DNA of 61,319 nt, taken from assembly GCA_017437005.1 (NCBI GenBank), contig JAFSBZ010000049.1, forward strand, positions 1 to 61,319. The letters run 5' to 3'. Source of the stretch: Clostridia bacterium (GTDB lineage: Bacteria > Bacillota > Clostridia > Oscillospirales > Acutalibacteraceae). Both the position numbers and the translations under genes were made by a program. Below are positions 6,412 to 16,391 of the stretch, piece by piece. How positions within the stretch are numbered: position 1 is the stretch's first letter; each line of letters opens with the position of its first letter. The notes under the pieces were generated by a model. The model searched no databases. It worked only from the letters and a program-made list of their open reading frames with translations, and had not been told where the DNA came from.

Positions 6412-6460
6412 ATAAAATAAGTTATTGTATTTATTTAAAATGCAAAGTGAGGATAAAAAA

Positions 6461-8713
6461 ATGAAGTTTGTTGCAAAAAGATGGTTTAGCATATTGCTTG
6501 CGCTAATTATGTGCTTTAGCCTGGTATTGAACGTAAATATGCTTTCAAAGGCGGATTACGTCGATTATGTTACCTCGGGCGGTTACATATACAACTGGGG
6601 TAATCGCGGCGAAATTGCTACATTTCTTTCACAAAACGCAGAAGGCTTTTACGAGGATAACAATACCTCTTATGAAGAGCTTTCATCCCTTACAGGAAGT
6701 AGTAACAAAAGTAATGTTCCCTCAAGCGCGTTGTACAACGAATTGCAGGATTTGATGGAATCAAATCATTCTAACATAACAAGTTATAATGAGACAAGAG
6801 ATTTGTACCAATATACCGATTGTCAAAACAGCGGTAAAACGAGCAAAAAAATATCATCTTTTTACTCAGGTAAGGAGATTGGTCCTTCTTGGGATAGTGG
6901 CTCTACCTGGAATCGCGAACACACCTGGCCTAACAGCAAGGGCTTGGAAGGTAGCGACGAAAATGATATAATGATGTTAAGACCAACTGCGGTAAGCGAA
7001 AATTCAAGCCGCGGTAATACTGCTTATGGCGAAAGTACAGGGTATTATGATCCTAACAGTGTATCAGGCGGCAAGTACAATTTGCACGGTGACGTTGCAA
7101 GAATTATGCTTTACCAATACGTAAGATGGGGTAATACCGGTAATATGTGGGGAACCTCAGGTGTTATGGAAAGTGTTGAGGTTTTGCTCGACTGGATAGA
7201 GGAAGACCCCGTTGATACATGGGAGCTTGGACGTAATGACTCGGTAGAGGCAATTACAGGTACACGTAATGTTTTTGTTGACTATCCCGAGCTTGCATTT
7301 GTTTTGTTTGATGCCGATATTCCCGCCGATTATGCTACTCCTTCAGGAAATGCTGACAGCGTGCAATACAAAATTACTGCTCAATCCAACAACACCTTGT
7401 GGGGTACTGTTTCCGTTAGTGGTAAGGTTGTAAACGCAATAGCCCAAACAGGTTATGAGGTATCCGGTTACGAAATAATCAGTGGTACTGCTACTGTTAC
7501 AAGAAGCGGCAACACACTTACTGTTTCTGCAGCAAGTGATGTTGTAATTCGTATAAACTTTGCTGCTCGTTCACAAAAATCCATACACTTTGTTGAAAAC
7601 GATAATTTGGTAGATACACAGGTTGTATATGGCGGCGATATGATTAACTTGCCTTCAAGCACAATTAGTGTAGAAGAAGGAATAACTTTTGTTGGTTGGG
7701 TTGAAGAATCGCTTAGCGAAACCGACGAAATACCGCAATATTACACAGCGGGTAGTCAGTATACCGTTACTGCCGATGCAACATTATACGCTCTTTATTC
7801 TAAAAATGTAAATGACGGTGGTTCAAGCAGTAATGTGTTTGAAAAATACAATGGTGCTCTTACCGAAGGAGATTACATATTTACATACGAAGGCGGTGCT
7901 ATGAAGGCGGCCGCTACCGATAAAAATAGACTTCAAATTGCTACTGCTGATGACTCTGGTAATGAAATGACAGTTACTGATGATTTAGTAATATGGCATA
8001 TTGCAAAAGATGGCAATTATTGGACCATTTATAATGCATCTACAGGAAAATATGCAGGCGGTACAGGTGTTAAAAACACAGCAAAGCTTTTAGACTCGGT
8101 TGATGATTTTGCTAAATGGACCGCAACAGGAAACGGCACGTATGAGTTTGTAAACCTTGGTAATGATGCAAAGGGTGTTAATCCATTGCTTCGCAGAAAC
8201 GGTGACGTAGGCTTTGCGTGCTACGCGAACAACACAACTGTTGGTGGTGCTTTAACACTGTATAAGCGTGTTTCGGGAACGGTTTATTACTTTACATCAA
8301 CCTCCTCGGTGTGCGCTCACGATTACAACTCCGATTGTGACACAACCTGTAGCTTATGTAACGAACACAGAGTTGTGTATTCGGTACACACCCTTAATAG
8401 CAGTAATGTTTGTATTGACTGTGGCGTAGAATTGCAGTCTTTTAGTACAGCCGACATTGACAATGATGGCAAGATTAATCCACGTGATTATATCATTATA
8501 GTAAGATATTTAAACGGTTGGGATGTTGAATTTCCACTTAATGCCGCTGATGTAAATGGCGACGGTAAGGTAAACGGTCGTGACTGTGTGATTCTTATGC
8601 AGTATATTAACGGCTGGGACGTTGAAATTCCAGGCATTGATTCGGGTAAGGAAGACACAACAGAGCCTGAAAAGCCTGTTTATAACAATCAAGGCCCGTT
8701 GGTATTTTTCTAA
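6461..8713 (+). CDS. Secreted endonuclease I-family nuclease with C-terminal type I dockerin
   Basis: The 750-residue protein has a signal peptide (about 1-31), then an endonuclease I-type catalytic domain (about 35-290) with the His-Me motif NREHTWPNSK (His154). This is a non-specific DNase/RNase fold usually secreted. A beta-rich middle (about 300-610) contains an InlB-like VVYGGDMINLPSS repeat and a lectin-like segment. A Cys-rich stretch (CDTTCSLCNEH, CIDCG) precedes a type I dockerin near the C-terminus with two Ca-binding loops (DIDNDGKINPRD, DVNGDGKVNGRD) each followed by a helix ending NGWDVE. The dockerin should attach it to a cohesin on a scaffoldin. The ATG at 6461 has a GTGAGGA SD. 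A paralogue without dockerin follows. Confidence 0.88.
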   Translation: MKFVAKRWFSILLALIMCFSLVLNVNMLSKADYVDYVTSGGYIYNWGNRGEIATFLSQNAEGFYEDNNTSYEELSSLTGSSNKSNVPSSALYNELQDLMESNHSNITSYNETRDLYQYTDCQNSGKTSKKISSFYSGKEIGPSWDSGSTWNREHTWPNSKGLEGSDENDIMMLRPTAVSENSSRGNTAYGESTGYYDPNSVSGGKYNLHGDVARIMLYQYVRWGNTGNMWGTSGVMESVEVLLDWIEEDPVDTWELGRNDSVEAITGTRNVFVDYPELAFVLFDADIPADYATPSGNADSVQYKITAQSNNTLWGTVSVSGKVVNAIAQTGYEVSGYEIISGTATVTRSGNTLTVSAASDVVIRINFAARSQKSIHFVENDNLVDTQVVYGGDMINLPSSTISVEEGITFVGWVEESLSETDEIPQYYTAGSQYTVTADATLYALYSKNVNDGGSSSNVFEKYNGALTEGDYIFTYEGGAMKAAATDKNRLQIATADDSGNEMTVTDDLVIWHIAKDGNYWTIYNASTGKYAGGTGVKNTAKLLDSVDDFAKWTATGNGTYEFVNLGNDAKGVNPLLRRNGDVGFACYANNTTVGGALTLYKRVSGTVYYFTSTSSVCAHDYNSDCDTTCSLCNEHRVVYSVHTLNSSNVCIDCGVELQSFSTADIDNDGKINPRDYIIIVRYLNGWDVEFPLNAADVNGDGKVNGRDCVILMQYINGWDVEIPGIDSGKEDTTEPEKPVYNNQGPLVFF

Positions 8714-8727
8714 CACTTAAATAATTT

Positions 8728-8766
8728 AACACCGTACTTTTTTACATATAAAGGTACGGTGTTTTT
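8728..8766 (+). terminator. Terminator after the dockerin nuclease gene
   Basis: A 10-bp stem AACACCGTAC/GTACGGTGTT (8728-8737 with 8754-8763) is followed by a short T run. Confidence 0.75.
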
Positions 8767-8810
8767 ATGTGAATAATGATTATTGAGGTGGATTAATATA
8801 CAAAAACACC

Positions 8811-8839
8811 TTGCAGGGTACTTAATTTTATGATATTAT
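8811..8839 (+). promoter_or_regulatory. Promoter for the second nuclease gene
   Basis: TTGCAG (8811-8816) and TATTAT (8834-8839) have 17-base spacing, about 38 bases upstream of the start codon. Confidence 0.6.
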
Positions 8840-8876
8840 ATTTCAAATATTATCCGTTAACGAAAGGAATAACGAT

Positions 8877-10337
8877 ATGAAAAACTTTTTTAAGCGTAGT
8901 TTGGCAATAGTTTTATCTTGTGTGCTTGTTTTTGCATTACTTTGCAATTTCAATATACAAGTAAATGCTGCAACTATCGACTATGTTTATGCCGAGGGTA
9001 AATATATTAAAAATTGGGGTATTCGCGAGCAGGTAGCTACGTTTTTATCACCTAATGCAGATGCCTTTTACGAAAAAAATCAAACTTCGTATTCCAAGCT
9101 TGCTGCGCTTTCGGGTAGTAGCGATATTAGTCAGATTCCTTCAAGCGCTCTTTATCAGGAATTACAAAATCTAATGAAGAAAAACCATACATTTATAACC
9201 GATTATGGTTATACACGATATAAATTTCAATATACAGATATTCAAAACAGCGGTAAAGACAGTAGCTCAATTTCATCATTTTATTCGGGTAAAGCCATTG
9301 GTCCTAAATGGGATACGGGTAAAACCTGGAATCGTGAGCACGTTTGGCCCAACAGCAAGGGTGACAAGGCAGGCGATGGAGAAAATGATATTATGATGCT
9401 TCGTCCAACTGCAAGCAGTGAAAACGGCGCTCGTGGAAACAGGGCTTACGGCAAAAGTGCGGGATATTATAATCCAAATATGGAATCGGGCGAGCAACAC
9501 GATTTGCGCGGTGACGTAGCTCGAATTGTGCTTTATCAATATGTTCGTTGGAACTGTATAAATACAGGCTCTAAATATAATTCAAAGGATATTTTTGGTA
9601 CAGCCGGCATTATCGAAAGCAGAGAAATATTGCTCGAATGGAACAAGTCCGATCCCGTTGATACGTGGGAGCTTGGTCGTAACGATTCTGTTCAGTCGAT
9701 AACGGGTACACGTAATGTTTTTGTGGATTATCCTGAACTCGCATTTGTTTTATTTGGTGAACAGGTACCTGCCGACTACACAACTCCGTCAGGCAACGCC
9801 CAAAACGGTGTAACACCACCTGCACAAACACCTGAAAACAACGAGCAGCCAAGCCAAAACAACACACAAAACAATCAAAGCACCCCTCAAAATACAACCC
9901 CAACCGTTACCGCGTGCACACATGCCGGTTCATACAAGGTTGAAGAGGATGCTCCAAGATGTGAAATCGAAGGATATACAGAGGGTAAGTATTGTCCTGA
10001 TTGCAAAAAATACATAAGTGGACGCGTACTTATAGAAGCTACAGGACATAGCTATAGCGGGGACTGTGATGCTGAATGTGATGTGTGCGGTAGCACAAGA
10101 GAAATATCAACCGATGTAGCGCATAAATTCGGCGATGATAATGTTTGTACCGTGTGTGGTATAGAAAATATTGATAAAGCTGATACAAATCAACAAGACA
10201 CAAGCGCCGATGTAAGCGATACTTCAAACGGCGCTTGGGGATGGATAATAATTGCAGGCGGAATTTTAGTTGTAGCAGTCGGAGTAACATTGATAATAAT
10301 TTACCGTGATAAAATATGGCCTAAGGATGTTGAATAA
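8877..10337 (+). CDS. Secreted, membrane-anchored endonuclease I-family nuclease
   Basis: The 486-residue paralogue of the preceding nuclease has a signal peptide (about 1-32), a catalytic domain to about residue 305 with NREHVWPNSKG, and a Gln/Asn/Thr/Pro-rich linker. A Cys-rich module follows (CPDCKKY, CDAECDVCG, CTVCGIEN), then a single membrane helix (about 453-478, WIIIAGGILVVAVGV) with a short positively charged tail. It lacks a dockerin: the helix should hold it on the outer face of the membrane. The role is probably degradation of extracellular nucleic acid for nutrients; this is inference. It has its own promoter and terminator, so it is not co-transcribed with the upstream paralogue. 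Confidence 0.87.
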   Translation: MKNFFKRSLAIVLSCVLVFALLCNFNIQVNAATIDYVYAEGKYIKNWGIREQVATFLSPNADAFYEKNQTSYSKLAALSGSSDISQIPSSALYQELQNLMKKNHTFITDYGYTRYKFQYTDIQNSGKDSSSISSFYSGKAIGPKWDTGKTWNREHVWPNSKGDKAGDGENDIMMLRPTASSENGARGNRAYGKSAGYYNPNMESGEQHDLRGDVARIVLYQYVRWNCINTGSKYNSKDIFGTAGIIESREILLEWNKSDPVDTWELGRNDSVQSITGTRNVFVDYPELAFVLFGEQVPADYTTPSGNAQNGVTPPAQTPENNEQPSQNNTQNNQSTPQNTTPTVTACTHAGSYKVEEDAPRCEIEGYTEGKYCPDCKKYISGRVLIEATGHSYSGDCDAECDVCGSTREISTDVAHKFGDDNVCTVCGIENIDKADTNQQDTSADVSDTSNGAWGWIIIAGGILVVAVGVTLIIIYRDKIWPKDVE

Positions 10338-10342
10338 CTAAA

Positions 10343-10378
10343 AAAGAAGTCATACCAAAAGGTATGACTTCTTTTTTT
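10343..10378 (+). terminator. Terminator after the second nuclease gene
   Basis: A 12-bp perfect stem (AGAAGTCATACC with GGTATGACTTCT, loop AAAA) is followed by T7. Confidence 0.9.
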
Positions 10379-10448
10379 GGAAGGTCTGAAGGAATTCGCT
10401 GCCTTTTAAAAGTTAAAGGGTATATGTTTGAACTCATATTCATTTTAA

Positions 10449-10627
10449 ATGAAATCGTTTTGCTAACGCTCACGATGAAATCCAAAACAAGTTTTGGATG
10501 AAATTTTTGGCCAAAGCAAAAAATGAAATAAAATTTGCCTTCAAAACATTTGGCGCAAGCCAAATATTTCATACGCGAAAGCGTATTTCATCGCAAGGCG
10601 ATTTCACTCGCCGTGAGGCGAATTTCA
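10449..10627. repeat. Hairpin array A: short palindromes joined by ATGAAAT/ATTTCAT
   Basis: This non-coding stretch consists of successive small palindromes with different stems, joined by a constant linker. Clear units are 10480-10499 (ATCCAAAAC/GTTTTGGAT), 10548-10565 (ATTTGGC/GCCAAAT), 10571-10586 (ATACGC/GCGTAT), 10590-10602 (ATCGC/GCGAT) and 10608-10621 (TCGCC/GGCGA), with weaker ones at 10454-10476 and 10504-10526. The linker reads ATGAAAT in the left part and its reverse complement ATTTCAT in the right part. It lies between the nuclease gene terminator and the downstream end of a minus-strand gene pair. 10379-10448 and 10664-10721 show nothing I can name. Confidence 0.8.
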
Positions 10628-10629
10628 TT

Positions 10630-10663
10630 GAAAAAGACCAAGTCAATTGACTTGGTCTTTTTC
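10630..10663 (-). terminator. Perfect 34-bp palindrome, terminator of the two-gene cassette
   Basis: The sequence GAAAAAGACCAAGTCAA is followed directly by its exact reverse complement, so both strands end in a T run. It lies downstream of the minus-strand pair ending at 10722 and abuts hairpin array A. Confidence 0.7.
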
Positions 10664-10721
10664 TGCCTAAAAGTAACCAAACGGAGCAGAATCGAGGTAA
10701 AAGTAAGCAAAAGTACACCTA

Positions 10722-11135
10722 TTATCTGTCAACTTCTGCTCGTTCGAATTTTATTTTGAATGTAAATTCCTCGGGATAAGCATCAAAATCTTGTAAATCA
10801 ATTTCTAAAGTATAGTATTTACCGTGATCAACAAGTCTGTCTGCTAACCACCAAACTTTATCTCTGCCTTCTAAAGAAATATCCTCGGTCAGAATCCTAT
10901 AATTGAAAAGACGAATCTCTTTCACCTCATTGTCATATAGCGCACCCTTTGCGTTAATTCTCAAGGTTATGAGGTTTCGATTGTATATATTCTTTTCGCC
11001 AACAAATTTATTATAATCGAAAGGAAATTCAAATGATTCTGTACCTATAATACAAGCGTCATGTAAACCACTAATCCAATACCATTCCGGAGGATTGTCA
11101 GGATAATTTGAAATATACACTTTACCTTTTGACAT
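10722..11135 (-). CDS. Unknown 137-residue protein, second gene of the cassette
   Basis: The protein is acidic, with an N-terminal part rich in aromatic residues (NPPEWYWISGLHDACI) and a beta-rich remainder ending FKIKFERAEVDR. It has no signal peptide or membrane helix and I do not recognise a family. The ATG at 11135 is fixed by AAGGAG seven bases upstream and overlaps the end of the upstream four-helix-bundle gene by 14 bases, so the two are probably translationally coupled and function together. A 166-residue reading from an earlier start would run through the SD and is unlikely. The pair is enclosed by hairpin arrays A and B. Confidence 0.75.
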   Translation of the reverse strand: MSKGKVYISNYPDNPPEWYWISGLHDACIIGTESFEFPFDYNKFVGEKNIYNRNLITLRINAKGALYDNEVKEIRLFNYRILTEDISLEGRDKVWWLADRLVDHGKYYTLEIDLQDFDAYPEEFTFKIKFERAEVDR

Positions 11136-11478
11136 CTTTATTCTCCTTAGCGGTGTTGATAGAGGAGATGAGCATTCTGCGAATTGAACCACAATTGTGT
11201 AAAACTGTCTTTGCAACGTCACCGGAAATCAAACCTGCTTTTTGAGCTATTTCAATCCAATATTCTGTCTCATAACATTCTTTTAATGCAATCTGTAACT
11301 TAGCAATAAAATCGGGACGGCTGTGCGCGTATTTCGCTTCACGGATATTTGCTCCAATACTCGTTCCGCTTCTTTCAAGCTGATTAGATAATGAATAGTG
11401 TCCCTTGATGTTATCGGTCAGCTTCAATATTTGAATCGCAAATTTTGTAGATAAATCCGCCAATTTGTTTTCAGCCAT
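11122..11478 (-). CDS. Four-helix-bundle protein (S23 / Avd-like family)
   Basis: The 118-residue protein matches the four-helix-bundle family that includes proteins encoded in 23S rRNA intervening sequences and the accessory Avd protein of diversity-generating retroelements. The signature is SNQLERSGTSIGANIREA followed by FIAKLQIALKECYETEYWIE. Members form basic pentameric barrels that can bind nucleic acid. No reverse transcriptase, rRNA gene or variable-repeat target is visible nearby. The ATG at 11478 is eight bases after AGAGG; two earlier starts overlap that SD. It heads a two-gene unit whose -35 box touches hairpin array B. The function in this setting is unknown. Confidence 0.85.
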   Translation of the reverse strand: MAENKLADLSTKFAIQILKLTDNIKGHYSLSNQLERSGTSIGANIREAKYAHSRPDFIAKLQIALKECYETEYWIEIAQKAGLISGDVAKTVLHNCGSIRRMLISSINTAKENKDVKR

Positions 11479-11499
11479 CACCATCACCTCTTTGAATAT

Positions 11500-11528
11500 A
11501 TTATATCACATATTCTAACGATTTTCAA
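11500..11528 (-). promoter_or_regulatory. Promoter of the two-gene cassette
   Basis: On the minus strand TTGAAA (11523-11528) and TATAAT (11500-11505) are separated by 17 bases. The -35 box is formed by the outermost bases of hairpin array B (ATTTCATTGAAAA). Confidence 0.6.
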
Positions 11529-11690
11529 TGAAATCGCGCAAAGCGCGATGAAATCCTCACTCCGCTCGGATGAAATCTGCTAACGCAGATGAAATCAAAT
11601 CCACCCACCCGCCGTCGAGGCGGATTTCATCCCCGTAGGGGATTTCATCATCGGAGATGATTTCACCCATCCGAAAGGGTGGATTTAGTT
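11528..11690. repeat. Hairpin array B: short palindromes joined by GATGAAATC/GATTTCATC
   Basis: Seven successive palindromes with different stems share one linker. They are 11533-11549 (ATCGCGC/GCGCGAT), 11553-11571 (ATCC/GGAT), 11575-11590 (ATCTGC/GCAGAT), 11609-11623 (CCGCC/GGCGG), 11629-11643 (ATCCCC/GGGGAT), 11647-11661 (ATCATC/GATGAT) and 11664-11681 (CACCC/GGGTG). The linker reads GAAAT in the first three and ATTTC afterwards. A 10-bp inverted pair, AAATCCACCC (11597-11606) and GGGTGGATTT (11677-11686), encloses the second half. The array lies between the promoter of the two-gene cassette and the tRNA-Gly terminator. Confidence 0.85.
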
Positions 11691-11735
11691 GAAAAGAAAC
11701 ACCATTTGTCCGGTAGACAAATGGTGTTTCTTTTC
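11691..11735. terminator. Long perfect hairpin, terminator of tRNA-Gly
   Basis: A 20-bp perfect stem (11691-11710 with 11716-11735) with a five-base loop has GAAAAG at the left and CTTTTC at the right, so T runs follow on both strands. It directly follows the 3' end of the minus-strand tRNA-Gly. Confidence 0.8.
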
Positions 11736-11810
11736 TGGAGCAGGTGATGGGAATCGAACCCACATAGCCAGCTTGGAAGGCTGGAATTCTAGCCATTGAA
11801 CTACACCTGC
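11736..11810 (-). tRNA. tRNA-Gly (anticodon TCC)
   Basis: Read on the minus strand, acceptor arms GCAGGTG/CACCTGC, a D-arm (GTTCAATGGCTAGAAT), anticodon stem CCAGC/GCTGG with loop CTTCCAA (anticodon TCC) and a T-arm with TTCGATT are all present. The CCA end is encoded. Confidence 0.95.
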
Positions 11811-11826
11811 ATATTTAACGGGGTAT

Positions 11827-11855
11827 ATAATAACACAAAAAATCTGTACAGTCAA
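11827..11855 (-). promoter_or_regulatory. Promoter of tRNA-Gly
   Basis: On the minus strand TTGACT (11850-11855) and TATTAT (11827-11832) are separated by 17 bases, just upstream of the tRNA. Confidence 0.65.
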
Positions 11856-11908
11856 GACTTTTCTTAAAAAAATTTAATTATATTTTATTGTATATTTATA
11901 TATAATAA

Positions 11909-11937
11909 TTGACATTTTGCACGATTTTTGATATAAT
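11909..11937 (+). promoter_or_regulatory. Consensus sigma-A promoter of the yicC operon
   Basis: A perfect TTGACA (11909-11914) and a perfect TATAAT (11932-11937) have exactly 17 bases between them. It is the only clear promoter before the long collinear run ending at 29287. Confidence 0.8.
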
Positions 11938-11977
11938 ACAATGAATTAAAATACGATTATTATGCGTGGTGGATTAT

Positions 11978-12856
11978 ATGGTTACAAGTATGACAGGTTT
12001 TGGTCGTGGTAAAGTTTGCGAGCCTGATTTTAATATTACAGTTGAAATAAAATCGGTTAATCACAAATATTTTGAATACAGTTCACGAATGCCTCGTTCA
12101 TTTCAATTTATTGATGATTCGCTTAAAACTCTTTGTCAGCAAAAAATATCTCGCGGCAAGGTAGAGCTAAATGTTCAGTTTGAAGATATTTCTTCAAATT
12201 CTATTGAACTTTCGGTAAATACCGCTTATGCCGATGCATACATAAAGGCATTGCATAAATTTGCAAAGGATTATAAATTAAAAGACGATATAAAAGCTTC
12301 ATCAATAGTTGGAAATACCGAAATTTTTACAGTAAGAAAACGTGATATTGATGAAGAACTTATAAAATCAGCCGTTATTACTGCAGCTACCGAAGCTCTT
12401 GACAATTTTGTTTCAGCCAGAGCGGTTGAGGGTTCTCGTTTGGTCAGTGATATAAAAAGCAGGGCGGATTTTATATTAACTCAGGTAGAATTTATCGAAC
12501 AGCGCTCACCGCAAACTGTACGTGAGTATCGCGAAAAAATCGAGACACGTATGCGCGAGCTTATAGAGGATGTTCAGATTGATGAGTCTCGACTTATAAC
12601 AGAAACCGCAATTTTTGCCGATAAAATAGCGGTTGCGGAAGAAACGGTACGTCTTCGCAGTCATATTGCTTCGCTTTGCACTATGCTTGATGACGGCGGT
12701 GTTGTTGGTCGAAAGCTTGATTTTTTGGTTCAAGAAATGAATCGCGAGACAAATACTATCGGTTCTAAATGTCAGGATATTGAAATCACAAAGGTTGTGG
12801 TTGACATTAAGTCCGAGATAGAAAAAATTCGCGAACAAATTCAAAATATTGAATAA
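11978..12856 (+). CDS. YicC/YloC-family endoribonuclease
   Basis: The 292-residue protein begins with the family hallmark SMTGFGRG, has the conserved [12 protein letters not shown] and a C-terminal [20 protein letters not shown] segment typical of YicC/YloC, metal-dependent ribonucleases that act on structured RNA. Length agrees with the family (about 290). The ATG at 11978 has GGTGG a few bases upstream; an earlier GTG overlaps that SD. The order yicC-remA-gmk-rpoZ-priA-def-fmt is the classical Firmicutes arrangement. It is the first gene of the long operon. Confidence 0.93.
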
Positions 12857-12867
12857 GAGGTAACCTT

Positions 12868-13137
12868 ATGAGACTTGTAAATATAGGTTTTGGTAACCTT
12901 GTATCTGCCAATAGAATGATTGCAATAGTTAGTCCGGAATCAGCTCCTATAAAGCGTATTATTCAAGATGCAAAGGAGCGAGGAACTCTTATTGATGCTA
13001 CTCACGGCAGAAGAACACGCGCGGTTATTATTACTGACAGTGACCATATTATATTAAGTTATTTGCAATCCGAAACGGTTGCAAATAGAATAAGTGACGA
13101 AAATGCAGTAGATGATGAGGAGGACACCGATGAATAA
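12868..13137 (+). CDS. remA: RemA-family regulator (DUF370)
   Basis: The 89-residue protein starts [20 protein letters not shown] and contains [20 protein letters not shown], both diagnostic of RemA/YlzA. In Bacillus RemA is a DNA-binding activator of extracellular matrix genes and osmoprotectant uptake. A polysaccharide cluster lies 18 kb downstream, but regulation of it by this protein is inference only. The acidic C-terminal tail (DDEEDTDE) overlaps the start of gmk by eight bases. Confidence 0.93.
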
Positions 13138-13735
13138 AGGAAGAGTATATATTATATCCGGTCCGTCAGGTACGGGTAAAGATACCTTGATGAAAAAATT
13201 ATTTGAAAAATTACCCGAGCTTGCTTTTTCAATCTCGTCAATTACAAGACCAATTCGCTCGGATGAGGTCCCCGGTGAAAAATATAACTTTATTTCACAT
13301 GAGCAATTTGAAAAAATGCTTGCAGAGGATGAATTTCTTGAGCATAATTTATACGTTGGTAACTATTACGGTACTCCTAAAACACCTGTTTTAAAGTGTA
13401 TTGAAAAAGGTCAGGATATTTTGATAGAGGTAGACGTTAACGGCGCCGCACAAATACGTGAAAAAATGCCCGATGTTGTAACTATTTTCATACTGCCTCC
13501 TTCACTTGAAGAGTTAAAAAGACGTTTAACAAGCCGCGGTACAGATAGTCCCGAGGTTATAGAAAAACGCTTAAACGAGGCTTTAAGAGAAATTGAAGGC
13601 TCGGTAGATTACGATTTTGTTGTTGTTAACGACAAGCTTGAGAAAGCCGTTGATGATTTTATAAACATTTTATCGGTTGATAAATGTAAAACCGAGTTAA
13701 ATTTAGGCTTAATAAATAAAATTTTAAATAAGTAA
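13130..13735 (+). CDS. gmk: Guanylate kinase
   Basis: The 201-residue enzyme phosphorylates GMP to GDP with ATP. The P-loop [10 protein letters not shown] (about 11-20), [19 protein letters not shown] (GMP-binding) and [13 protein letters not shown] are present. The ATG at 13130 follows a GAGGAGG SD and overlaps remA, indicating coupling. Size and order are standard. Confidence 0.96.
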
Positions 13736-13756
13736 TTTTGAAAGGAACTGTCAACT

Positions 13757-13939
13757 ATGTTAAATCCCGCAATTGGAAAGCTTATCGAATCTTATGAAAA
13801 TCGCTACGGTCTTGTAACCGAGATTGCAAACTGTGCACGTGAAATTTCTGCCGAAGCAGAAGAAGGTAAAGAAATTTTACTTGAAAAACCTGTAAGCATT
13901 GCGATTAATAAAATCGCTGCAGAAAAAAATCTTATCTAA
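13757..13939 (+). CDS. rpoZ: RNA polymerase omega subunit
   Basis: The 60-residue protein has the omega core: MLNPAIGKLI, then YGLVTEIANCAREISAEA and KPVSIAINKIA. It binds the beta-prime C-terminus and helps RNA polymerase assembly. It is slightly short for the family (about 65-75) but sits in the conserved gmk-rpoZ-priA position with GAAAGGA upstream. Confidence 0.93.
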   Translation: MLNPAIGKLIESYENRYGLVTEIANCAREISAEAEEGKEILLEKPVSIAINKIAAEKNLI

Positions 13940-13970
13940 GTCAATTTTATATTAAAAAGGGGGGTTCGGT

Positions 13971-16391
13971 ATGTATCGTTTGGTTGCAGAAATTGTAATA
14001 GACGGTGCTGCCGGCTCTTTTGATAAGTGCTACACCTATGCAATACCTTCAGCTTTTGTCGCAAAAGCAAAGCCCGGATGTCGAGTAACTATTCCGTTTG
14101 GTAAAGGTAACATAAAAAAGCAAGGAATGATTTTAAGCGTTTTTGAGGGGGAAACCACCGAAAAAACCAAAGAAATATACTCCGTTACCGATAATGAACC
14201 AATACTGAACGATGAAATGATAAAAATGTGTAAATGGCTCAAATCACACGTATTTTGCACCTATTTTGATGCTATACACGCTATGCTACCTGCAGGGCTT
14301 AATTACAAGCTTAATGATTATTACTCGGTAAATGAGGAATTTTGTTCGCCTTCGTTTTTATCGGAAAGCGAAAGAGAAGTTTTTGATTTTTTGACAAAAT
14401 CGGGTGAACAACCGCTAAAAAAAATAGAACAGATTTATCCAAATGCTAATGAAATACTTGCTTCATTGTATGAAAAAGAAGCGGTTGTAAAAAACCAGAT
14501 TCCTATACGTAGGATGCAGGATATGACTCGTCGTTGGGTAAAAATTAATGCCGATTCTACAATCCCAAAGCTTACCGAACGACAGCAAGAAATATATGAT
14601 ATTGTTGATGCGGCGGGTAGTGTGTCGGTAAAAGAACTACAGTATTTTACGGGTGTTTCAGCCTCGGTTATTAATTCTCTTGAAAAAAAAGGAGTTTTAA
14701 TATCCTTTGAAAAACAAGAATTTCGTTTACCGCATATCAGTAGTAACTATATAGATCGCGAAAAGATTGTGCTTACCGATGAACAACAACAAGCCTATGA
14801 GGGTTTATTGTCACTTACAAATTCATCGCAAGGCGAGGCGGCGCTTTTATACGGTGTTACAGGCAGTGGAAAAACAAAGGTTTTTTTAAAGCTTGTAGAT
14901 GATGTTTCTTCGCGCGGTGAAGGTGTTATTATTATGGTGCCCGAGATTGCGCTTACACCTCAAATGATTAAGATATTCAGTTCGCGTTATGGCAGTAAAA
15001 TAGCAATTTTTCACAGCGCTATGTCCTTGGGTGCTCGAATGGACGAGTGGACGCGTATAAAACAGGGCAAGGCGCTTATTGCTATTGGTACTCGTAGCGC
15101 AATTTTTGCTCCGTTTGAAAAACTTGGACTTATCGTTATTGACGAAGAACAAGAACACACATATAAATCTGAAAAATCACCGCGTTTTCACGCGCGTGAG
15201 TTGGCAAAATTTAGAGCCATATATCACAAATGCTTGCTTTGTCTTGCGTCGGCTACGCCTTCAATAGAAAGCTATAGCTCGGCGCTTATTGGTAAATATA
15301 AATTATTTACCTTAAAAAAACGTTACGGTAATGCAGCACTTCCTGATGTTTGCCTTGTAGATATGCGAAAGGAATTATCTGACGGTAACTCATCAGATAT
15401 CAGCCGTGAGCTCGCTATAAAAATATCTGATGCATTAGAGCAAAAAAAGCAGTCGATTATTTTGCTGAACCGCCGTGGGCATAACACATACGTCAGTTGC
15501 AGTAGTTGTGGCTGGGTAGCAAGCTGTGAAAATTGCAGCATTTCACTTACGTATCATTCTGCAAACCGACGTTTGATGTGTCATTATTGCGGTGCATCAC
15601 ACCCAATACCTAAAAAATGTCCCGAATGTGATGGCGAGTTTTTTCATTTTTCGGGTTCGGGTACGCAAAAGCTTGAGGAAGAATTAAAACTACTTTTTCC
15701 AAATGCACGAATTTTAAGGCTTGATGCCGACAGTACCCTGTCACGTGATTCGTATTCAAACTATCTTACTGCGTTTGCAAATGGCGAATACGATATTATG
15801 CTTGGAACTCAAATGGTAGCAAAGGGACTTGATTTTCCAAACGTTACCGTTGTGGGTGTTATAGGCGCCGACAGAGCGCTTTACAGTGATGATTTTCGTG
15901 GTTATGAACGCACCTTTGCTTTGCTTACGCAGGTTGTTGGCAGGGCAGGTAGAGCGCAAAATGCGGGTGTTGCTGTAATACAAACTAATGATACCGATAA
16001 TAATATAATCACACTTGCGCAATCTCAGGATTATGATGCTTTTTTTGAAGAAGAGATTAAAAATCGCAAGCTGATGGTTTTTCCGCCATACTGTGATATT
16101 TGTATGATTTATGTGCAGTCGTATGACAGCGGTATTGCGAGCGAAACGATATATGAGGTGTTTAACAACATTAAACAGGCAATTTCAGGTGATTACAGTG
16201 ACGTTAAACTTATGATTTTAGGTCCTGCGCCTGCATCGGTGCCAAAGGTTAATAATAAATATCGTTATCGTATTATAATAAAGGCAAAAAACAGTTCGCG
16301 TTTTAGAGAAATGATACGCGTTGCAACTGATATAAAATTAAAAAGAGATACTTACATCGGGGTGGATATTAATCCCGAGAATATAATCTAA
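13971..16391 (+). CDS. priA: Primosomal replication-restart helicase PriA
   Basis: The 806-residue DNA helicase binds stalled forks and reloads the replisome. Visible are the N-terminal DNA-binding domain, Walker A GVTGSGKTK, motif II VIDEEQEHTYKSE, ARELAKFRA, the zinc-binding Cys pairs (CSSCGW, CENCS, CHYCG, CPEC) and motif V/VI GTQMVAKGLDFPNV and QVVGRAGRA. Motif II has Gln where many PriA proteins have His (DEEH); I believe this variant is common in Clostridia. The start has a GGGGGG-type SD. It is complete. Confidence 0.95.
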   Translation: MYRLVAEIVIDGAAGSFDKCYTYAIPSAFVAKAKPGCRVTIPFGKGNIKKQGMILSVFEGETTEKTKEIYSVTDNEPILNDEMIKMCKWLKSHVFCTYFDAIHAMLPAGLNYKLNDYYSVNEEFCSPSFLSESEREVFDFLTKSGEQPLKKIEQIYPNANEILASLYEKEAVVKNQIPIRRMQDMTRRWVKINADSTIPKLTERQQEIYDIVDAAGSVSVKELQYFTGVSASVINSLEKKGVLISFEKQEFRLPHISSNYIDREKIVLTDEQQQAYEGLLSLTNSSQGEAALLYGVTGSGKTKVFLKLVDDVSSRGEGVIIMVPEIALTPQMIKIFSSRYGSKIAIFHSAMSLGARMDEWTRIKQGKALIAIGTRSAIFAPFEKLGLIVIDEEQEHTYKSEKSPRFHARELAKFRAIYHKCLLCLASATPSIESYSSALIGKYKLFTLKKRYGNAALPDVCLVDMRKELSDGNSSDISRELAIKISDALEQKKQSIILLNRRGHNTYVSCSSCGWVASCENCSISLTYHSANRRLMCHYCGASHPIPKKCPECDGEFFHFSGSGTQKLEEELKLLFPNARILRLDADSTLSRDSYSNYLTAFANGEYDIMLGTQMVAKGLDFPNVTVVGVIGADRALYSDDFRGYERTFALLTQVVGRAGRAQNAGVAVIQTNDTDNNIITLAQSQDYDAFFEEEIKNRKLMVFPPYCDICMIYVQSYDSGIASETIYEVFNNIKQAISGDYSDVKLMILGPAPASVPKVNNKYRYRIIIKAKNSSRFREMIRVATDIKLKRDTYIGVDINPENII

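What the first reader, a model, noticed from the sequence alone, without database searches (positions are those of the whole stretch)
10449..11690. Two-gene cassette (four-helix-bundle protein plus unknown protein) bracketed by hairpin arrays
Arrays A and B, built on the same linker (ATGAAAT), lie on the two sides of a translationally coupled pair: an S23/Avd-like four-helix-bundle gene and an unknown gene. The array edges facing the pair both read ATTTCATTGAAAA outward from the array, like inverted termini, and one edge supplies the -35 box of the pair. Proteins of this family are tied to rRNA intervening sequences and retroelement target recognition, so a role in binding, spreading or processing structured repeats is possible. 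The proximity, orientation and shared linker are seen; the functional link is inference.
Basis: partly seen in the sequence, partly recalled or inferred. Interest (0 to 1): 0.75.

Follow-up and report, generated by a model that had tools for sequence, protein, structure and literature searches.

The report
Mobile gene with matching hairpin array
A small bacterial gene of unknown function, first known from insertions in ribosomal RNA genes, nearly always sits behind its own array of hairpins joined by a short motif typical of that gene's subfamily, and genomes with more of the gene hold more gene-less copies of such arrays, which points to a little-described kind of mobile element.

Summary
Arrays, shared linker, overlapping gene pair and -35 box are real. 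"Two-gene cassette bracketed by inverted arrays" is not: each array has inverted edges at both its own ends, both arrays point the same way, and the second gene is a passenger, found elsewhere behind an array without the four-helix gene.

The unit is [terminator + array + four-helix gene]. All 6 family genes of this genome have an array directly upstream. In relatives 5 or more linker copies lie upstream of 100 of 134 family genes; in a first set 42 of 62 against 5 of 153 control genes. Linker follows protein phylogeny even between different sites (44 of 61; shuffled mean 7). Family genes lie behind 28 kinds of tRNA gene (67 of 122; controls 1 of 149). Sites are empty in relatives.

Half of each array is the Rfam candidate RNA Gut-1, function unknown. 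Gene-less arrays are common; over 60 genomes Gut-1 number rises with four-helix gene number (rho 0.70) but not with reverse transcriptase or Y1 transposase. On plasmids of five phyla one inverted short repeat brackets the gene in 18 of 20 loci.

Best reading: autonomous mobile element plus non-autonomous arrays. Movement is inferred; mechanism unproven.

The parts
11122..11487 (-). four-helix-bundle gene (S23 / 23S_rRNA_IVP / TIGR02436), 121 aa from the GTG at 11487
   Evidence: PF05635 E 1.2e-25; TIGR02436 E 4.1e-29; a profile of 17 relatives matches solved structures 2rld and 2gsc
11522..11694 (-). array B: TGAAAT linkers then ATTTCA linkers (gene strand), variable hairpins between; array of the four-helix gene
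   Evidence: conserved in one block with the gene in L053, L099, L100 and others; covarying stems
11619..11691 (-). Gut-1 RNA (RF01706) match in the first half of array B
   Evidence: 62 bits, E 5.9e-11
11677..11687 (-). X: 5' arm of long-range helix in array B (also 5' arm of the first hairpin)
11596..11606 (-). X': central 3' arm of the long-range helix
11691..11735 (-). terminator-like hairpin between tRNA and array B (20-bp perfect stem)
   Evidence: I1; homology with L053, L099 and L100 runs through it
11500..11528 (-). promoter-like TTGAAA-17-TATAAT; the -35 lies in the array edge
11736..11810 (-). tRNA-Gly(TCC) behind which the element sits
10722..11135 (-). passenger ORF, 137 aa, overlaps the end of the four-helix ORF by 14 nt
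   Evidence: no Pfam, PADLOC or PHROGs match at the limits used; matches in 4 other genomes of 70
10443..10634 (-). array A: second array of the same polarity without its own four-helix gene
   Evidence: aligned to arrays upstream of family genes in L110, L126, L127, L114, L117
10561..10630 (-). Gut-1 RNA (RF01706) match in the first half of array A
   Evidence: 59.2 bits, E 3.1e-10
10630..10663 (.). palindromic terminator-like hairpin between passenger ORF and array A
   Evidence: I3
10340..10377 (.). terminator-like hairpin that resembles the tRNA-Gly terminator of relatives, now distal to the element
   Evidence: (I2); likeness judged by eye
10659..10715 (-). 57-bp repeat between passenger and array A
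   Evidence: 86% in L099 downstream of its gene, 93% in L100 upstream of its array

Best explanation
Array B plus the four-helix gene is one copy of a small mobile element, a free-standing relative of the S23-coding intervening sequences of rRNA genes. The element is [terminator, array of about 4+4 inverted linkers with hairpins, promoter, four-helix gene], often with a passenger gene behind. It settles just downstream of tRNA and other genes. The gene-bearing form is the autonomous one; the many gene-less arrays (Gut-1 RNA loci, array A, arrays in front of other genes) are non-autonomous derivatives. The four-helix protein recognises linkers in the folded gene strand (RNA or single-stranded DNA) and so promotes copying or insertion. 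SHOWN: association, fixed plan, stem covariation, linker-protein correlation, gene-number/array-number correlation, different sites for near relatives, empty sites, gene-less copies. INFERRED: binding, that binding drives movement, and the route through the folded gene strand.
For: 6 of 6 family genes in the genome have an array directly upstream, five different linkers. Five or more linker copies upstream: 42 of 62 family genes, 5 of 153 controls; 100 of 134 in the enlarged set. Nearest protein relative shares the linker (5 of 6 letters) in 74% of 103, shuffled 12%, maximum 23%; with the relative at a different site 44 of 61, shuffled mean 7.1, maximum 17. Gut-1 array matches against PF05635 matches over 60 genomes: Spearman 0.70, p 7e-10 (0.57 within the genus, 0.82 in the rest); mean 10.6 in 44 genomes with the gene, 1.0 in 16 without; RT 0.11, Y1 0.18, genome size 0.09, none significant. 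Twelve arrays of one clade: linkers invariant, 35 double-change stem cells, 0 of 500 shuffles. Same-strand tRNA within 450 bp upstream: 67 of 122, 28 kinds, controls 1 of 149; 12 of 20 gene-less arrays likewise have one just upstream (my reading). Empty sites: tRNA-Gly in L194, L195, L199; ilvE in L232, L233, L235, L237. A 97% array copy over 182 bp, same direction, before another ORF in L102. 18 of 20 plasmid loci bracketed by one inverted repeat. Stem mismatches G.T 76, A.C 37 on the gene strand, p 3e-4.
Against: No transposition has been seen; all evidence is positional. The protein has no recognised catalytic domain. Linker-protein correlation can arise from joint inheritance without binding. 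In the own genome the six gene-less Gut-1 arrays looked at have linkers of the GTGAAA or GTGATA kind, none equal to a linker of the six resident genes (genome 85% complete), which a strict linker code would not predict. Only 7 of the 150 Gut-1 matches listed lie within about 450 bp upstream of a PF05635 match (compared by hand). In tRNA-type copies a -10 box follows the array (50 of 67, 26 expected), so the array need not be in the gene's mRNA. No target duplication was established. Place relative to the native terminator differs: distal at tRNA-Gly, proximal at ilvE. The wobble bias is modest.
Confidence: 0.6

Rival explanations
1. The array is an independent mobile or regulatory hairpin element (Gut-1), and the four-helix gene is merely its commonest passenger or a gene regulated by it.
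For: Gene-less arrays outnumber gene-linked ones; other genes also stand directly behind arrays; the array ends at the -35 box; own gene-less arrays looked at carry linkers not matching the resident genes.
Against: Nearly every family gene has an array, whatever the linker; array number follows gene number and is low where the gene is absent; in other phyla the gene is bracketed by one inverted short repeat.
Confidence: 0.22
2. The unit is mobilised in trans by a reverse transcriptase, as Avd serves diversity-generating retroelements.
For: PF05635 resembles Avd (PMC10053308, passages); gene-strand wobble bias.
Against: No RT match in the own draft genome with six family genes; RT in 16 of 60 genomes, 12 of 44 with and 4 of 16 without the family; RT number does not track array number.
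Confidence: 0.06
3. The unit is a passenger of a Y1 (HUH) transposase, like REP sequences with RAYT.
For: Hairpin arrays with gene-less copies; Y1 in 38 of 60 genomes and in the own genome.
Against: 28 of 44 with and 10 of 16 without the family have Y1; 14 of the 44 have neither Y1 nor RT, among them G051 with seven family genes; Y1 number does not track array number.
Confidence: 0.06
4. A conserved two-gene cassette bounded by inverted arrays, as first proposed.
For: Arrays on both sides with one linker; overlapping genes. The same order, with a decayed second gene, recurs behind another tRNA-Gly in L053/L272.
Against: 37 second ORFs among 129 loci fall into 32 unrelated clusters; the best second-gene homologue (69%) stands behind an array with no four-helix ORF found; A and B have the same polarity.
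Confidence: 0.04

Closest known systems
Gut-1 RNA (Rfam RF01706)
   Same: The first halves of arrays A and B are Gut-1 matches above gathering; 17 of 20 Gut-1 loci looked at are full arrays with one orientation switch.
   Different: Published as a noncoding-RNA candidate found only in environmental sequences, marked probably not cis-regulatory (PMC2864571, three passages read); those passages mention no protein partner or mobility. Arrays of other linkers escape the model: of 20 family loci scanned one had a match above gathering (L031).
S23p-coding intervening sequences (IVS) of 23S rRNA genes
   Same: Same protein family; called a selfish element; inverted repeats; [quoted passage not shown] IVP ORFs also in rRNA insertions of CPR bacteria (PMC11270868, passages).
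   Different: Here outside rRNA, behind tRNA and protein genes, with a 4+4 inverted-linker hairpin array, a promoter and passenger genes.
Heptamer repeats of Cyanobacteria, Beggiatoaceae and Bacteroidetes (TAACTGA; the name STRR is recalled)
   Same: Short tandem units, in one strain mostly just upstream of start codons, perhaps spread horizontally, 'no mechanism is evident' (PMC4679880, outline with abstract and one passage). Plasmid copies here are bracketed by such short repeats.
   Different: The abstract names S1, Csp and Csr families as candidate partners; the term search found no helix-bundle or S23 mention. I did not test TAACTGA itself.
REP sequences with RAYT transposase (recalled)
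   Same: Works alike: a protein gene beside cognate hairpin repeats, with many gene-less copies.
   Different: No Y1 domain in either gene of the pair, different fold and repeat plan.
Avd of diversity-generating retroelements
   Same: Related four-helix fold (stated in PMC10053308, passages).
   Different: No RT found in the own draft genome.

Membership tests
PF05635 / TIGR02436 four-helix protein | score above the curated cut-off | tested here: met
   90.3 bits against 33.8; 101 against 24
Gut-1 RNA | score above the gathering score | tested here: met
   arrays A and B, 59.2 and 62 bits against 50
Gut-1 RNA | expressed as a noncoding RNA | not testable with these tools
   needs RNA-seq
rRNA intervening sequence (IVS) | lies inside an rRNA gene | tested here: not met
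   Rfam at gathering scores finds a tRNA and two Gut-1, no rRNA, in 8000-14000
rRNA intervening sequence (IVS) | codes for an S23 protein with short repeats upstream | tested here: met
   published counterpart
rRNA intervening sequence (IVS) | excised from RNA by RNase III | not testable with these tools
   needs RNA work
REP/RAYT | Y1 (HUH) transposase beside the repeats | tested here: not met
   no Y1 match in the pair; Y1 number does not track array number
DGR accessory protein (Avd) | reverse transcriptase in locus or genome | tested here: not met
   no PF00078 match in the 85% complete own genome
transposon with terminal inverted repeats | inverted repeats at both ends of the unit | tested here: inconclusive
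   18 of 20 plasmid loci, five of them with 1 to 14 of 200 shuffles as good; in Clostridia downstream copies in 9 of 98, 2.9 expected
transposon | target site duplication | tested here: inconclusive
   two sites compared by eye, no clear duplication
CRISPR array | repeats all in one orientation with unique spacers | tested here: not met
   linker flips orientation in mid-array

The most novel reading that the evidence does not exclude
S23/TIGR02436 genes define a separate class of bacterial mobile element, present in at least five phyla, in which one small four-helix protein of no known catalytic fold acts on arrays of short repeats and moves them, passenger genes included, to the 3' flanks of tRNA and other genes. 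Gut-1 RNAs would be its non-autonomous copies in gut Clostridia; the heptamer repeats of Cyanobacteria and other bacteria, and the rRNA intervening sequences, would be further forms of the same class.
Probability: 0.45. Interest if true: 0.92.

Novelty: new variant of a known kind. Interest (0 to 1): 0.8.

Why it matters
The S23 protein is described as without known function, Gut-1 as a noncoding-RNA candidate, and heptamer repeats as spreading by no evident mechanism. One element with a protein and cognate arrays would join the three and give a binding partner, defined units and sites to test. If the protein alone moves its array, that is a recombination activity on a fold not known for it. 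Reports of this family beside CRISPR genes may then be insertions rather than parts of those systems.

Tried and rejected
Rejected: inverted-termini reading of A and B; conserved pair; RT or Y1 as obligatory helper; chance repeats. I had also held that the second gene has no homologue beside other family genes; a decayed one stands in L053. A notebook line that the native ilvE terminator is distal in both carriers was wrong. The first wobble count (56 to 20) included linker positions; it was redone with linkers masked and looser stems (76 to 37).

Preprints and most subscription journals are not in the library. The fold of the passenger protein (job) was not finished at any of 14 polls, the last. 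PADLOC and PHROGs gave no match. Rows dropped: of 66 first-set genes 4 had under 350 bp upstream; of 146 loci 12 likewise; for the linker test 146 became 139 without near-duplicates, 126 with 300 bp upstream and no stop in the core (L093 and L172 have stops), 103 with a linker call. In several loci below the cut the start codon was called inside the array. Stem pairs were chosen on the same alignment, which favours the paired percentage; 'further pair types' was not above shuffles (291 and 500 of 500), nor, for X-X', 'pairs with a change on both sides' (190 of 500).
Full report
WHAT IS IN THE WINDOW. The window is contig C49 of a 1.97 Mb draft genome, about 85% complete. On the minus strand, in the direction of transcription: tRNA-Gly(TCC) 11810-11736, a terminator-like hairpin 11735-11691, array B, a promoter-like TTGAAA-17-TATAAT whose -35 lies in the array edge, a four-helix gene 11487-11122 (PF05635, E 1.2e-25), an unknown ORF 11135-10722 overlapping it by 14 nt, another hairpin 10663-10630, array A, and a hairpin 10377-10340 like the tRNA-Gly terminator of relatives. 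Each array reads its linker one way in the first half and the other way in the second, so each has inverted edges at both its own ends. Rfam names the first half of both arrays, on the gene strand, Gut-1 RNA (62 and 59.2 bits, gathering 50).

ARRAY AND FOUR-HELIX GENE. The genome has six PF05635 matches. Each has a repeat array immediately upstream; linkers ATGAAG, GCTAAAT, ATGAATAAT, ATGAAAT (two genes), TATGTCATC. PF05635 occurs in 44 of 60 genomes searched, own included. I fetched 60 regions. Of 66 first-set genes 62 have 350 bp upstream; 42 of these have five or more copies of one 6-mer on either strand, against 5 of 153 upstream regions of other genes in the same loci, of which by eye only one (L084) is a hairpin array. 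Four or more hairpins: 43 of 62 against 6 of 153. With 80 MAG loci from the genome collection (the best 80 kept of 571) there are 146 loci, 134 with full upstream, 100 with five or more linker copies; most of those below the cut show shorter or degenerate arrays by eye, L121 and L092 least. The orientation string is typically ++++---- or a near miss.

STRUCTURE. In twelve arrays of the ATTTCAT clade (A2) the linkers are invariant and the stems vary. Thirty stem pairs, chosen on this alignment, give 94.9% paired cells, 35 double-change cells and covariation 0.314, each reached by 0 of 500 shuffles and by no slid control; the number of further pair types is not above shuffles. A long-range helix joins the 5' arm of the first hairpin to the middle of the array: 98.5% paired, covariation 0.315, 0 of 500 shuffles, though its number of pairs with double changes is not above shuffles (190 of 500). 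The same 5' arm can pair with either partner, so two folds compete. B folds better than its shuffles as DNA (z -5.45) and RNA (z -4.64), A as RNA (z -5.14). Single stem mismatches, linkers masked, are G.T 76 against A.C 37 on the gene strand (p 3e-4; five-fold shuffles 201 to 173). This favours a function of the folded gene strand; the arrays are related, so the p value is optimistic.

LINKER AND PROTEIN. Of 103 loci with a linker call, the nearest protein relative has the same linker (5 of 6 letters) in 74%, shuffled 12%, maximum 23%. With the partner at a different tRNA or site: 44 of 61, shuffled 7.1, maximum 17. Array and gene thus travel together while hairpins change; this is not proof of binding.

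GENE-LESS ARRAYS. In loci chosen around the gene, 77 of 90 strong arrays lie within 250 bp of a family ORF, but that sample is biased. The Gut-1 model finds 28 matches at E 1e-3 in the own genome and matches in 44 of 60 genomes, 39 of 60 above gathering (at most 64 candidates per genome were scored and strict filters used, so counts are rough). Comparing by hand the 150 matches listed with the PF05635 places, 7 lie within about 450 bp upstream of one. Twenty Gut-1 loci, taken from the listed matches without random choice, were fetched: 17 are full arrays with one orientation switch, none has a four-helix ORF, and in 12 a same-strand tRNA ends just upstream. Other gene-less arrays are followed by a stub that looks like the start of a four-helix gene (L130, L149, by eye) or by another ORF; in L102 a second array, 97% identical over 182 bp and in the same direction, precedes another small ORF. 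Array A aligns with arrays that precede family genes in L110 (85%), L126, L127, L114 and L117.

GENE NUMBER AND ARRAY NUMBER. Over the 60 genomes Gut-1 matches correlate with PF05635 matches (Spearman 0.70, p 7e-10; 0.57 in the 37 genomes of the genus, 0.82 in the other 23): 466 matches in 44 genomes with the gene, 16 in 16 without; 38 of 44 against 6 of 16 have at least one. Reverse transcriptase (0.11), Y1 transposase (0.18) and genome size (0.09) do not correlate significantly. Relatedness is not corrected for. This is what an autonomous element with non-autonomous copies would give. Against a strict code, the six own gene-less arrays looked at carry linkers of the GTGAAA or GTGATA kind, none equal to a resident gene's linker.

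SITES AND EMPTY SITES. The window block matches L053, L099, L100 and others through hairpin, array and gene; it ends at or in the tRNA or array on one side and near the gene end on the other, except L053, which runs about 85 bp into the second ORF. The tRNAs differ: Gly-CCC (L053), Arg-CCG, Trp, Lys, Leu-CAA, Gly-GCC, Tyr, Leu-CAG; none was found in L100, L101 and L056. Of 122 loci 67 have a same-strand tRNA within 450 bp upstream, 28 kinds, against 1 of 149 control genes. At the orthologous tRNA-Gly site L194, L195 and L199 lack the element, and L045 has another element with another linker at a tRNA-Gly; the terminator that follows the tRNA directly in the empty sites appears distal to the element in the window and in L045 (by eye). 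Behind ilvE, 16 loci were looked at: arrays in two (own L231; L238, another linker), none in 14; among close relatives L232 (100% identical stretch), L233, L235 and L237 are plainly empty and L236 keeps what looks like the array start; here the native terminator stays on the near side.

PASSENGERS. Of 129 loci 37 have a Shine-Dalgarno-led ORF of 60 aa or more near the four-helix stop, 24 overlapping it, 22 of these starting one base before the stop codon; the 37 fall into 32 clusters, the largest of two; some are plain neighbours of the site. Of ten scanned, six match Pfam at E 1e-3: ASCH, VanZ, DUF218, deaminase, HAD, GNAT. The window's second gene has no Pfam, PADLOC or PHROGs match. In 70 genomes of the genus it matches in 5, own included: G068 (69%, full length) has it directly behind an ATGAAT-type array and a tRNA-like sequence, with no four-helix ORF found in 2.1 kb; G007 (L272, the L053 locus) has a decayed copy after the four-helix gene and a B-type array; G069 (38%) shows no array; G090 is a fragment. 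So it is a recurrent passenger of arrays, with or without the four-helix gene.

OTHER PHYLA. tblastn found the family in 34 plasmid records; 20 were fetched: 15 Cyanobacteriota, 2 Chloroflexota, 1 each Bacteroidota, Spirochaetota and Bacillota. In 18 of 20 one 6-mer occurs at least twice within 150 bp upstream and, reverse-complemented, at least twice downstream; 0 of 200 shuffles in 13, 1 to 14 of 200 in L184, L189, L185, L225 and L226; L190 and L227 fail. L180 and L223 look like near copies, and the reading frame of L185 is interrupted. Several lie between genes that belong together: cas2 and cas1 (L225, L227), hsdS and hsdR (L185), DrmD and PglX (L186), csx2 and cas1 (L189). In Clostridia downstream copies are rare, 9 of 98, 2.9 expected.

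HELPERS. Reverse transcriptase: 16 of 60 genomes, none in the own; 12 of 44 with and 4 of 16 without the family. Y1: 38 of 60; 28 of 44 and 10 of 16. Fourteen of the 44 have neither. A lost helper cannot be excluded, and many genomes are incomplete.

LITERATURE. Gut-1: a noncoding-RNA candidate found only in environmental sequences, marked probably not cis-regulatory (PMC2864571, three passages). Family in cas loci, also between cmr3 and cmr2 (PMC3936711, passages); IVP ORFs in rRNA insertions of CPR bacteria (PMC11270868, passages); likeness to Avd (PMC10053308, passages); listed with CRISPR adaptation modules (PMC10910872, one figure legend). [quoted passage not shown] TAACTGA heptamers mostly lie just before start codons in one strain and spread by no evident mechanism (PMC4679880, outline with abstract and one passage).

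VERDICT. The unit is a four-helix gene with its array; the window holds one complete copy with a passenger and one gene-less array. The array half was known as Gut-1; its tie to the S23 family, the linker-protein correlation and the number correlation are what is new as far as my searches go. What the protein does to the array is not shown.

Noticed in passing
L195, L199, L045 behind tRNA-Gly: Partial copies of the tRNA 3' end flank another hairpin-rich insert at the same tRNA, a second, different-looking repeat element at this hot spot.
   Followed up: no
window 10659-10715; L099 4740-4796; L100 1436-1492: 57-bp repeat that ends just before a terminator-like hairpin, in three loci at different places relative to the element.
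   Followed up: no
L225, L227 (cyanobacterial plasmids): Four-helix gene between cas2 and cas1, on the opposite strand, in two genera; may explain its listing as a CRISPR-associated family.
   Followed up: partly
L185, L186, L187, L188: Four-helix gene between genes of defence-type operons: hsdS/hsdR, DrmD/PglX, DUF1156/Swt1-HEPN (the last pair in two phyla).
   Followed up: partly
L269 1345-1530 (G068): Homologue of the window's passenger gene directly behind a hairpin-poor ATGAAT-type array and a tRNA-like sequence, without a four-helix ORF in the 2.1 kb held.
   Followed up: partly
L084 11466-11643: A gene-less ATATCA-type array followed at once by the start of another, AATGAA-type array upstream of another gene.
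   Followed up: no
window 6425-8713 and 8877-10337: Two neighbouring secreted nuclease-like ORFs with similar N-terminal halves; the first seems to carry a dockerin-like repeat (by eye).
   Followed up: no
L191, L192 (unannotated gut phage scaffolds): Family gene with upstream array on sequences deposited as phage.
   Followed up: no
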